DNA of 64,000 nt from positions 4,216,001-4,280,000 of the forward strand of contig NZ_JASVWB010000002.1 of assembly GCF_030287445.1 (NCBI RefSeq). Direction: 5' to 3'. Positions 27,940 to 56,233 of the stretch are shown here, one piece after another. The position numbers and the translations under genes were made by a program. Position 1 is the stretch's first letter. Each line of letters opens with the position of its first letter. The DNA comes from Streptomyces sp. ALI-76-A (GTDB taxonomy: Bacteria > Actinomycetota > Actinomycetes > Streptomycetales > Streptomycetaceae). The notes beneath the pieces were generated by a model, which worked only from the letters and a program-made list of their open reading frames with translations, had not been told where the DNA came from and searched no databases.

Positions 27940-28007
27940 GAATTGCCCCCTCCGCTTCTCTTACGGAGGGGGCAATTCGATGAACGCTCGGTAACTGCGG
28001 TTACCGA
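27940..28007 (-). terminator. Terminator of the riboswitch operon
   Basis: A 15-bp perfect stem (27940-27954 with 27964-27978, loop of 9) preceded, on the coding strand, by a smaller hairpin TCGGTAAC-TGCG-GTTACCGA just past the sulfur-carrier stop codon. The main stem is symmetric enough to act in both directions and isolates csp from the upstream operon. Confidence 0.85.
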
Positions 28008-28016
28008 AGGTAATGA

Positions 28017-28292
28017 TCAGCCGCCGGCGACGGCCGGAATGATGGAGACACCGGCGCCGTCCGGGGTCGCGGTCTCCAGTCCCTGCTCGAAGCGGACGTC
28101 GTCGTCGTTCACGTACACGTTGACGAACCGGCGCAGCTTGCCCTGGTCGTCCAGTACCCGGGCGGCAATGCCCGTGTGGTTCTTCTCCAGGTCGGCGATG
28201 ACCTCGCCGAGGGTGGCTCCGTCGGCGGCGACCTCGGCCTTGCCGCCGGTGTAGGTGCGCAGGATGGTGGGGATGCGGACAGTCACGCTCAC
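28017..28292 (-). CDS. metO: MoaD/ThiS-type ubiquitin-like sulfur carrier (MetO-type)
   Basis: 91 residues ending in Gly-Gly (SIIPAVAGG), with the beta-grasp pattern TVRIPTILRTYTGG, GATLGEVIADLEKN and LRRFVNVYVNDDDVRF. The terminal Gly is normally adenylated and thiocarboxylated to donate sulfur. GTG start with a perfect GGAGG 8 nt upstream. It is cotranscribed behind a threonine-synthase-family enzyme under a SAM riboswitch, so I infer that it supplies sulfur for homocysteine formation rather than molybdopterin or thiamine. The metO name rests on that context and on my recollection of a reported Streptomyces pathway. Confidence 0.8.
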   Translation of the reverse strand: MSVTVRIPTILRTYTGGKAEVAADGATLGEVIADLEKNHTGIAARVLDDQGKLRRFVNVYVNDDDVRFEQGLETATPDGAGVSIIPAVAGG

Positions 28293-28325
28293 GATGGAAA
28301 CCTCCGGTCGGGTGGAGCGCCCCCG

Positions 28326-28393
28326 AGGGGCGCGGGACTGTATCGATGTGCGGCTCCGCCGCGCGGGCGCGACCAGCCCCCACCGGCCCGCAG
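28326..28393. repeat. Dispersed Streptomyces intergenic repeat (GGGGCGCGGG...GCGACCAGCC type)
   Basis: Sequence of the widespread streptomycete repeat that begins AGGGGCGCGGGACTGTATCG, runs through GTGCGGCTCCGCCGCGCGGG and ends in CGCGACCAGCC. It sits between the threonine-synthase-like gene and the carrier gene. A second, shorter relative is at the nagK-nagA junction. Identification is from memory of the family. Confidence 0.6.
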
Positions 28394-28404
28394 TATGACG
28401 ACGG

Positions 28405-29700
28405 TTATACGAGTCCGGCGTCCCGGAACGACTCCAGGCTGGGACGAATGGTCGCGGTGAGCCCGGTCCCGGCCACCGCGTCCAGCGTCTTGAGACCGTC
28501 ACCGGTGTTCAGGACGACCGTGGTCAACGCGGGATCCAGCAGCCCGTTCTCGATCAGCTTCCTCGTGACGCCGACCGTCACCCCGCCGGCGGTCTCCGCG
28601 AAGATACCCTCGGTCCGCGCCAGCAGCTTGATGGCGTCGACGATCTGCTCGTCGTTCACGTCCTCCACCGCGCCACCCGTACGGCGCGCGATGTCCAGCA
28701 CGTAGGGCCCGTCCGCCGGGTTGCCGATGGCGAGCGACTTGGCGATGGTGTCCGGCTTCTGCGGGCGCACCACGTCGTGCCCGGCCTTGTAGGCGACGGA
28801 CACCGGCGAGCAGCCCTCGGCCTGCGCACCGAAGATCTTGTACGGCCTGTCCTCGACCAGTCCGAGCTTGATCAGCTCCTGCAGACCCTTGTCGATCTTC
28901 GTGAGCTGCGAGCCGGAGGCGATCGGCACGACGAGCTGGTCGGGCAGCCGCCAGCCGAGCTGCTCGCAGATCTCGTACGCCAGCGTCTTGGAGCCCTCGG
29001 CGTAGTACGGCCGCAGGTTGACGTTGACGAAGCCCCAGCCCTCGCCGGCCGGGTCGCCGATCAGCTCGGAGCAGAAGCGGTTCACGTCGTCGTAGTTGCC
29101 CTCGATGCCGACGAGTTCGCCGCCGTAGATCGCGGCCATGACGACCTTGCCCTGTTCCAGGTCGTGCGGGATGAACACGCACGAGCGGAAGCCGGCCCGG
29201 GCGGCGGCGGCGCCGACGGCACCCGCCAGGTTGCCCGTGGAGGAGCAGGACAAGGTGGTGAAGCCGAAGGCGCGGGCGGCCTCGATGGCCTGGGCGACGA
29301 CCCGGTCCTTGAAGGAGTGGGTCGGGTTACCGGAGTCGTCCTTCACATACAGTCCGCCGGTGACGCCGAGCTCGCGGGCGAGGTTGTCGGCCTTCACGAG
29401 CTTGGTCCAGCCGGGGTTGATGTTGGGCTTGGTCGCCACGTCGGCCGGGACGGGCAGCAGCGGGGCGTAGCGCCAGAGGTTCGAGGGTCCCGCTTCGATC
29501 CGCTTGCGGAGTTCCTCGGTGTCGTAGGCCGAGAAGTCGTAGGCGATCTCCAGCGGGCCGAAACACTCCTCGCACGCGAAGACCGGGCCGAGGGGGACAC
29601 GGTGACCGCACTCCCGGCAGCTCAGCGCGGCGGCGGGGCCGAGGTCGACGGGGGAGTCGGTGGTGCTGTCCGTGGTGCTTGCAACAGTCTGCGCAGCCAT
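28405..29700 (-). CDS. thrC (metM): Threonine synthase-family PLP enzyme, probable homocysteine synthase (MetM-type)
   Basis: 431 residues. N-terminal zinc ribbon with Cys 28, 31, 43 and 46 (CRECG, CEECFG), PLP lysine at 131 (SFKDRV), SSTGNLAGAVGAAAARAG as phosphate loop, and LVVPIASGSQLTKI. By sequence it is a threonine synthase homologue using O-phosphohomoserine. The SAM-I riboswitch upstream and the sulfur-carrier gene downstream argue that it makes homocysteine from O-phosphohomoserine and thiocarboxylated carrier. Streptomycetes have a separate thrC in the hom-thrB cluster elsewhere. Ordinary threonine synthase activity cannot be excluded from sequence. Confidence 0.85.
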   Translation of the reverse strand: MAAQTVASTTDSTTDSPVDLGPAAALSCRECGHRVPLGPVFACEECFGPLEIAYDFSAYDTEELRKRIEAGPSNLWRYAPLLPVPADVATKPNINPGWTKLVKADNLARELGVTGGLYVKDDSGNPTHSFKDRVVAQAIEAARAFGFTTLSCSSTGNLAGAVGAAAARAGFRSCVFIPHDLEQGKVVMAAIYGGELVGIEGNYDDVNRFCSELIGDPAGEGWGFVNVNLRPYYAEGSKTLAYEICEQLGWRLPDQLVVPIASGSQLTKIDKGLQELIKLGLVEDRPYKIFGAQAEGCSPVSVAYKAGHDVVRPQKPDTIAKSLAIGNPADGPYVLDIARRTGGAVEDVNDEQIVDAIKLLARTEGIFAETAGGVTVGVTRKLIENGLLDPALTTVVLNTGDGLKTLDAVAGTGLTATIRPSLESFRDAGLV

Positions 29701-29720
29701 GTGAGGCGAGGCCCTTTCTC

Positions 29721-29875
29721 CTCATCTTCCCCACGGCGCATCTCGCCGTGAGACGGATTTGGCACCTTCCCTAGCCGGGGAGCCTCGCGGAAACGATCGA
29801 CGGTGATCGCTACGAGACCGGCTGGAGGGTTGCCGGGGCTTCATCGGGCCGTATCCCTCTGCCCCTCTGGATGAG
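29721..29875 (-). promoter_or_regulatory. SAM-I riboswitch (S-box)
   Basis: Read toward the PLP-enzyme gene: P1 strand CTCATC, then CAGAGGGGCAGAGGGA, GGCCCGATGAAGCCCCGGCA ACC (P2/J2-3 core), a variable P3, AAGGTGCCAAATCC (P3/J3-4), a P4 hairpin and the closing GATGAGG that pairs with the first strand. All conserved S-box blocks are in order and spacing. It ends about 20 nt before the start codon, so control may act on ribosome access (AGGAGAAAGGG region). Confidence 0.9.
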
Positions 29876-30063
29876 CGGTATGAAGTTGTTGATCGTTGAA
29901 ACGGAACGCCGACCCCGACATGCGATGGTCATCAGCGTTGTTCAAGACTGTAACCGAAGGCCAGGACAGTTGAGGGAGCCGTCCGAACCGCGAGATGGAT
30001 CACATGTTCCACCAGGGACCATGGATCGCAGCTCGCCGAGAGAACGCAGAGGAGCCGCGCACT

Positions 30064-55328: not shown

Positions 55329-55404
55329 AGCCTCCTGTCGGATTCGAACCGACGACCTGCTGTTTACAAGACAGCCGCTCTGGGCCGGACTGAGCTAAGG
55401 AGGC
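55329..55404 (-). tRNA. tRNA-Thr (UGU anticodon)
   Basis: 76 nt. Acceptor stem GCCTCCT with AGGAGGC plus discriminator T; D-arm GCTC...GAGC; anticodon stem CTGT-CTTGTAA-ACAG giving anticodon TGT; T-arm GTCGG-TTCGAAT-CCGAC. The 3' CCA is not encoded. Reads ACA threonine codons. It sits in a patch of decayed genes, a common outcome near integration-prone tRNA loci. Confidence 0.95.
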
Positions 55405-56115: not shown

Positions 56116-56233
56116 CCTGACCCAGTTCACGTGTGTGGACTACACCATCCCGGGCTTTGCCCCGGGACGGCTCACCACCTTCCTACAACGGATCGTCCGG
56201 CACGTTCCTGCCGGTAGAAGGGGGCCCTTCACC

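What the first reader, a model, noticed from the sequence alone, without database searches (positions are those of the whole stretch)
28017..29875. SAM riboswitch, threonine-synthase homologue and ubiquitin-like sulfur carrier in one operon: a likely O-phosphohomoserine route to homocysteine
Seen: a complete SAM-I riboswitch, then a zinc-ribbon threonine-synthase-family PLP enzyme, then a 91-residue carrier ending in Gly-Gly, and a strong terminator. A SAM riboswitch makes no sense in front of ordinary threonine biosynthesis but fits methionine supply. A carrier with a Gly-Gly tail supplies sulfide as thiocarboxylate. Together they suggest that O-phosphohomoserine plus carrier-borne sulfur gives homocysteine. 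I recall such a pathway (MetM/MetO) being reported for Streptomyces but cannot verify it here. Where the sulfur comes from (an E1-like activating enzyme) is not encoded nearby.
Basis: partly seen in the sequence, partly recalled or inferred. Interest (0 to 1): 0.85.

Follow-up and report, generated by a model that had tools for sequence, protein, structure and literature searches.

The report
Riboswitch-controlled MetM–MetO methionine operon
This is a Streptomyces copy of a recently described route to methionine, in which an enzyme that resembles threonine synthase is thought to make homocysteine with sulfur handed over by a small ubiquitin-like protein, under an RNA switch that senses the end product; the parts are really there, but the route is already published.

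Summary
In detail: a SAM-I riboswitch (29719-29877, minus strand, 75 bits), a zinc-ribbon threonine-synthase homologue (431 aa) and a 91-aa ubiquitin-like carrier ending Ala-Gly-Gly lie in this order. The 'terminator' is a 16-bp hairpin without a U-run. The genome has a separate hom-thrC-thrB cluster; MetX (full-length), MetA and archaeal-type HcyBio were not found; it has an E1-rhodanese (MoeZ type) and a separate CysO-CysM-JAMM set. All 121 Streptomycetaceae genomes sampled have a MetM match (one broken) and a SAM riboswitch. 173 MetM sequences differ from 10 ThrC at active-site columns (R160 to Tyr, N157 to Arg, T88 to Leu; Thermus numbering). Of 63 MetM loci read from other actinobacterial families, 48 have an upstream SAM riboswitch and 52 a carrier downstream; one has a T-box that I read as methionine-specific. 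No enzyme activity was tested; a Microcystis homologue is reported to act as threonine synthase and deaminase. Verdict: already known; low-to-moderate interest.

The parts
29719..29877 (-). SAM-I (S-box) riboswitch aptamer, full length; 50 nt in the P3 loop where the model has 6
29713..29726 (-). 3' arm of P1 (GATGAG) running directly into the presumed ribosome-binding site (GAGGAGAAAGG)
   Evidence: 110 of 110 loci match both P1-arm patterns; GATGAGGAGAAAGG exact in 102 of 110
28405..29700 (-). metM: PLP enzyme of the threonine-synthase family, 431 aa, PLP lysine K131, predicted homocysteine synthase
   Evidence: name from PMC12172450
29563..29619 (-). N-terminal zinc ribbon of MetM (Cys 28, 31, 43, 46)
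   Evidence: all four Cys in 174 of 174 MetM rows, own counted twice; gaps there in 10 of 10 ThrC rows; zinc binding inferred
28293..28404 (-). 112-nt spacer between metM and metO; the genes overlap in 33 of 110 loci read
28017..28292 (-). metO: ubiquitin-like sulfur carrier, 91 aa, ends AVAGG (no cap)
27940..27978 (-). 16-bp hairpin after metO, possible terminator without U-run

Best explanation
A MetM-MetO homocysteine pathway under SAM control. When SAM is scarce the riboswitch's P1 helix does not form, the ribosome-binding site directly behind it is free, and metM and metO are made. An E1-rhodanese protein (MoeZ type) adenylates the C-terminal Gly of MetO and puts a sulfur on it (thiocarboxylate). 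MetM binds O-phosphohomoserine (from Hom and ThrB), eliminates phosphate on PLP as threonine synthase does, but lets the carrier's sulfur attack the gamma carbon instead of water the beta carbon, giving homocysteine, which is then methylated to methionine. Shown here: the parts, their order, their conservation, the classical routes not found, the active-site differences from ThrC. Taken from the published S. albulus system (partly recalled): homocysteine as product, O-phosphohomoserine as substrate, thiocarboxylate as donor. Inferred only: translational control, choice of E1, fate of the MetO-homocysteine intermediate.
For: SAM riboswitch at 75 bits, the only one found in the genome; 121 of 121 family genomes have one over cut-off and 121 of 121 a MetM match, broken in one. 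All 110 Streptomycetaceae metM loci read match both P1-arm patterns and have a carrier downstream on the same strand. In 63 loci from other families, 48 have a SAM riboswitch upstream of metM on the same strand, one a T-box whose specifier I read as AUG, 52 a carrier downstream. Separate hom-thrC-thrB. MetA and HcyBio not found, MetX only as a short weak piece. E1-rhodanese. Differences from ThrC at 1uim positions 88, 155, 157, 160, 188, 189, 240 over 173 distinct MetM and 10 ThrC sequences. Published: MetM of S. albulus is a homocysteine synthase with an upstream SAM riboswitch (passages of PMC12172450).
Against: No activity of this protein was measured. The genome holds a protein over the cut-off of a cystathionine gamma-synthase model and one over that of a cystathionine gamma-lyase model, though no enzyme making their acylated substrate was found. 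The Microcystis homologue (51.6% identical to MetM, metO-like neighbour) was reported to make threonine and to deaminate it, with no rise of methionine in vivo. Folding does not prove the switch: AGAAAGG is 0.69 unpaired with P1 forced against 0.91 free; GATGAG stays mostly paired even without P1 (0.21 unpaired), and without ligand the P1 form is 3.1 kcal/mol less stable than the best fold. 40 of 121 family genomes also hold a MetX-like match at E <= 1e-80, so the route is not always the only one. 11 of 63 distant loci have no carrier within the flank and 14 neither a SAM riboswitch nor a T-box match.
Confidence: 0.93

Rival explanations
1. MetM takes free sulfide as its main donor; MetO is a helper or serves other enzymes (for example thiocarboxylate natural products or the CysM branch).
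For: In 11 of 63 non-Streptomycetaceae loci no carrier lies within the flank, and in one of these a nitrite/sulfite reductase follows metM at 118 nt. In S. platensis sulfur carriers and a JAMM serve secondary metabolism: loss of PtmS2 is tolerated, and PtmS3 carries a single Cys cap (passages of PMC6006322).
Against: Carrier downstream in 110 of 110 Streptomycetaceae loci, overlapping metM in 33; a second carrier beside cysM, with a JAMM gene close by, exists in the same genome.
Confidence: 0.12
2. An ordinary or second threonine synthase that happens to be under a SAM riboswitch.
For: TIGR00260 thrC scores 265 bits, over its cut-off; the Microcystis homologue is reported to make threonine.
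Against: Canonical thrC is present between hom and thrB. The ThrC residues at R160, N157, S155, T88 and N188 are replaced in nearly all MetM rows. Control follows SAM in 48 of 63 distant loci, plus one T-box read as Met.
Confidence: 0.04
3. The carrier is a second CysO that feeds cysteine synthesis and only sits beside metM.
For: MetO is 57% identical to the genome's CysO over 91 residues; its best PDB relatives are M. tuberculosis CysO and a ThiS/MoaD-family carrier, 4n6e.
Against: The genome's CysO lies directly beside cysM, whereas MetO lies with metM in all 110 Streptomycetaceae loci read.
Confidence: 0.05

Closest known systems
MetM/MetO of Streptomyces albulus (Hasebe et al. 2024, AEM 90:e01247-24; seen only through passages of PMC12172450)
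   Same: Threonine-synthase-like homocysteine synthase with an upstream SAM riboswitch; a gene metO of the sulfur-carrier kind (that it follows metM there is recalled)
   Different: No difference of kind found; the S. albulus sequence itself was not compared here
CysM/CysO/Mec+ of Mycobacterium tuberculosis
   Same: PLP enzyme takes sulfur from a thiocarboxylated ubiquitin-like carrier activated by MoeZR (PMC3227635); the carrier is a close homologue
   Different: Makes cysteine from O-phosphoserine; releases it with a protease; this genome has its own CysO, CysM and JAMM in addition
Threonine synthase ThrC (Thermus thermophilus 1uim, B. subtilis 6cgq, M. tuberculosis 2d1f)
   Same: Family, PLP lysine, substrate O-phosphohomoserine
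   Different: No zinc ribbon; the 10 ThrC aligned keep R160, N157, S155, T88 and N188; no RF00162 match in the 9 actinobacterial thrC stretches read (they do not all reach beyond hom)
HcyS/HcyD/MetY of Wolinella succinogenes (recalled, no call)
   Same: Carrier-borne sulfur for homocysteine
   Different: O-acetylhomoserine and a MetY-type enzyme; carrier needs trimming
PtmS1-PtmS4 of Streptomyces platensis (passages of PMC6006322)
   Same: JAMM, two capped carriers (MV and C) and a MoaZ homologue; the window genome's CysO has the same MV cap
   Different: Studied for thioplatensimycin; the Cys-capped PtmS3 is probably that strain's MetO (my inference)

Membership tests
SAM-I riboswitch (RF00162) | Covariance-model score over gathering threshold, whole model | tested here: met
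   75.1 bits vs 44.4, model 1-108
SAM-I riboswitch (RF00162) | Binds SAM and lowers expression | not testable with these tools
   needs probing or a reporter
MetM | Threonine-synthase homologue that is not the hom-thrB ThrC | tested here: met
   separate thrC 37% identical between hom and thrB
MetM | Upstream SAM riboswitch (reported for S. albulus) and neighbouring carrier gene (recalled) | tested here: met
MetM | Homocysteine from O-phosphohomoserine and MetO thiocarboxylate | not testable with these tools
   biochemistry needed
MetM | Direct sequence identity to S. albulus MetM | not tested
   that sequence was not fetched; 109 other Streptomycetaceae loci at 85-96% were read instead
Canonical threonine synthase (ThrC) | R160, N157, S155, T88, N188 (1uim numbering) kept | tested here: not met
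   Y233, R230, N228, L158, S262 in MetM; the 10 ThrC rows (9 Streptomycetaceae and 1uim) keep them. That these bind substrate or PLP in 1uim is recalled
Thiocarboxylate sulfur carrier (ThiS/MoaD/CysO) | ThiS-family match and C-terminal Gly-Gly | tested here: met
   PF02597 E 1.4e-16, ends AVAGG
Thiocarboxylate sulfur carrier (ThiS/MoaD/CysO) | An E1 to activate it in the genome | tested here: met
   ThiF + rhodanese protein, L011; that it acts on MetO is not tested
CysO (cysteine carrier) | Gene beside cysM | tested here: not met
   that place is taken by another carrier (L007)

The most novel reading that the evidence does not exclude
MetM is not a Streptomyces speciality but a widespread and perhaps old actinobacterial trunk route to homocysteine, with exchangeable control (SAM-I riboswitch close to the start codon or with a longer, terminator-like stretch; a methionine T-box in one lineage) and exchangeable sulfur supply: a carrier with an open Gly-Gly end, a carrier whose end is capped by Cys or other residues and would need a protease, or, in at least one lineage, a linked sulfite reductase and no carrier nearby.
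Probability: 0.5. Interest if true: 0.42.

Novelty: already known. Interest (0 to 1): 0.27.

Why it matters
It explains how a streptomycete in which MetX and MetA were not found can make methionine and SAM, the methyl donor for many natural products, and warns that some 'threonine synthase' annotations next to a small ThiS-like gene are probably wrong. The residue signature and the linked riboswitch or T-box give a simple rule to re-annotate such genes. The varying caps on the carrier make a testable point of how carriers and an E1 are shared between cysteine, methionine and thio-natural products.

Tried and rejected
Ordinary threonine synthase: rejected because of the separate thrC and the replaced active-site columns.

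Dispersed Streptomyces repeat in the 112-nt metM-metO spacer: I recalled such a repeat, but a blastn of the spacer against the window and 26 stretches of the own genome found nothing beyond itself; dropped.

Thermodynamic proof of the switch: forcing or forbidding P1 changed the accessibility of the ribosome-binding site only modestly, and an alternative pairing keeps GATGAG mostly paired; left open. Only 18 nt lie between aptamer (ends 29719) and start codon (29700), too few for an intrinsic terminator, which is why translational control is favoured.

Covariation count on the aptamer, structure prediction and fold search: not run.

Full report
What is there. On the minus strand, in order of transcription: a SAM-I riboswitch (29719-29877; 75.1 bits, E 8.8e-16), metM (28405-29700, 431 aa), a 112-nt spacer, metO (28017-28292, 91 aa, ends AVAGG) and a 16-bp hairpin (27940-27978; no U-run and not listed by the terminator scan). 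The riboswitch is the only match of its family found in the 9.69-Mb genome. The best named matches to MetM are Streptomyces species at up to 96% identity, so I take the host to be a Streptomyces.

The enzyme. MetM matches PF00291 and the threonine-synthase model TIGR00260 over its cut-off; its best five PDB relatives are threonine synthases. It has four N-terminal Cys in zinc-ribbon spacing, present in all 174 MetM rows aligned (173 distinct; the own protein was counted twice) and absent from all 10 ThrC rows. The ThrC rows are 9 from Streptomycetaceae and 1uim from Thermus, a narrow sample. Numbered by 1uim, MetM keeps the PLP lysine (K61, here K131), S84, T85, G86 and N87. Among the 173 distinct MetM rows T88 is replaced by Leu in 173, S155 by Asn in 171, N157 by Arg in 173, R160 by Tyr in 173, N188 by Ser in 172 and A189 by Gly in 173; the 10 ThrC rows keep the ThrC residue. 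The alignment around 154-155 has an uncertain one-residue gap; 157-160 is anchored by the following Glu-Gly. That some of these ThrC residues bind the substrate's phosphate is recalled, not from a call. The inference: an arginine has moved three residues and the site is rebuilt for another nucleophile.

The carrier. MetO is a ThiS-family protein; its best PDB relatives are M. tuberculosis CysO (3dwg_C) and 4n6e_B, a ThiS/MoaD-family protein. The genome has three further PF02597 matches: a CysO beside a cysM-like gene, 57% identical to MetO, one next to thiG (L009) and a MoaD-like protein ending FAGG (L010). The CysO ends AVAGG-MV. The only PF14464 (JAMM) match in the genome lies close to it, with a LacI-family gene between. 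Of five PF00899 (E1) matches, the best (285.5 bits) is a ThiF-rhodanese protein of MoeZ type, 1.55 Mb from the window locus; another scores 80.4 bits, and the other three are short pieces of 21.7-29.5 bits. In M. tuberculosis MoeZR puts sulfur on CysO (passages of PMC3227635).

The rest of the genome. hom, thrC and thrB (a GHMP kinase) stand together (L003), so threonine is covered. MetX: only a 62-position piece at E 6.6e-7. MetA: none. HcyBio: none. Four long PF01053 matches exist; of their matched stretches one is over the cut-off of a cystathionine gamma-synthase model, one over that of a cystathionine gamma-lyase model, and two are below every cut-off among the 25 families shown. So MetM is the only homocysteine route I recognise here; an unknown one is not excluded.

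Conservation in the family. A MetM match is in 121 of 121 Streptomycetaceae genomes sampled, own included; in G074, a 76%-complete assembly, it is in two pieces. A SAM riboswitch over cut-off is in 121 of 121. I did not compute the adjacency for all 121. In the 110 metM loci read (own, 29 of the 120 other family genomes, 80 named records; the 80 are the best kept of 590 related stretches) all 110 match both P1-arm patterns in the leader and all 110 have a carrier downstream on the same strand, overlapping metM in 33. MetX-model matches at E <= 1e-80 occur in 40 of 121 (no genome and no control reached the model's curated cut-off), so the routes may coexist in some.

Beyond the family. In a sample of 396 actinobacterial genomes 142 have a match at E <= 1e-60; 12 of these are Streptomycetaceae and 3 match only a paralogue of about 35% identity, which leaves 127 of 384. 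Of the 22 same-class genomes outside the family that the answer lists (its list of misses is cut), 2 have it. I read 63 of the 127 loci: 48 have a SAM riboswitch upstream on the same strand, 14 have neither that nor a T-box match, and one, L183, has a T-box (102.9 bits). In the register of the Rfam consensus its specifier reads AUG, methionine; that reading is mine. 52 of 63 have a carrier downstream, 11 none within the flank. By the first in-frame start codon behind the aptamer, a mechanical rule, some loci have 7-13 nt between aptamer and start and others 40-150 nt, with terminator-like hairpins by eye in several, so both kinds of expression platform seem to exist.

Caps. Of 110 Streptomycetaceae carriers 95 end in Gly-Gly, 14 in Gly-Gly-Cys, one in Gly-Gly-Ala; of the 52 others 35 are open, 16 carry one to six more residues, and one reads Trp-Gly. 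Capped carriers are known: in S. platensis PtmS2 (MV) and PtmS3 (C) are described, with JAMM PtmS1 and the MoaZ homologue PtmS4 (passages of PMC6006322). The window genome's CysO has the PtmS2 cap; Cys-capped MetO looks like PtmS3. That PtmS3 is the S. platensis MetO is my inference. An encoded Gly-Gly-Cys end is chemically like the CysO-cysteine adduct that Mec+ cleaves, so the JAMM would be the natural trimming enzyme; MetO in this window is open and would not need it.

Control. The 3' arm of P1 (GATGAG) runs into GAGGAGAAAGG; if AGAAAGG is taken as the Shine-Dalgarno sequence, 12 nt separate it from ATG. GATGAGGAGAAAGG is exact in 102 of 110 loci. With P1 forced GATGAG is fully paired and AGAAAGG is 69% unpaired; free or with the 5' arm barred 90-91%. 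But GATGAG is mostly paired in the other folds too, and the free best fold (-91.7 kcal/mol) lacks P1 (-88.6 when forced). The direction fits, the size does not prove it. Intrinsic termination between aptamer and start codon has no room.

What is known. PMC12172450 (passages) states that Hasebe et al. 2024 found MetM, a novel homocysteine synthase of Streptomyces strains, with a SAM riboswitch in S. albulus and homologues in cyanobacteria, and compares a gene next to the Microcystis thrC with metO of S. albulus. I recall the abstract of the 2024 paper as showing MetO thiocarboxylate as donor and O-phosphohomoserine as substrate; the paper itself was not held. Among the papers listed by searches I saw no other on MetM. 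The same PMC12172450 reports against a simple extension: the Microcystis homologue, 51.6% identical to MetM, made threonine, deaminated it at high concentration and did not raise methionine in vivo.

Verdict. What this study adds is the whole-genome check, the residue signature, the spread outside Streptomycetaceae, and the varying caps; whether the 2024 paper already holds some of this I could not see.

Noticed in passing
L143-L150, L152 (upstream of an IclR-type regulator gene): 12 of 121 Streptomycetaceae genomes have a second SAM riboswitch match. One (G078) is a second metM copy; of the other 11, 9 lie within about 210 nt before an IclR-family gene (Pfam in all 9) that I recall as NdgR-like; a GTG a few bases behind P1 may start a leader peptide (by eye). 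NdgR is reported to activate metH and metF (PMC4365011). One search for ndgR with SAM riboswitch (8 of 76 listed) showed no paper on this link.
   Followed up: partly
L142 2604-2740; L151 5943-6039: The other two extra SAM riboswitches: one between an S-adenosylmethionine synthetase gene and an MFS transporter, one before a GNAT acetyltransferase.
   Followed up: partly
L183 2649-2947: T-box leader instead of a SAM riboswitch before metM, specifier read as AUG; its carrier ends AVAWG instead of AVAGG.
   Followed up: partly
L214 1123-2844 (-): SAM riboswitch-metM followed at 118 nt by a nitrite/sulfite reductase, no carrier within the flank: a possible sulfide-fed variant.
   Followed up: partly
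L225-L232: A further zinc-ribbon PLP family, about 32-37% identical to MetM, in some genomes; function unknown to me.
   Followed up: no
L140 5284-5706 (-), L007 1492-1944 and 525-1475 (-): JAMM, CysO (MV-capped) and CysM-like genes lie close together with a LacI-family gene between JAMM and CysO.
   Followed up: partly
window 56170-56229 (+): msiK RNA motif (RF01747) over its gathering score; tRNA at 55329-55404.
   Followed up: no
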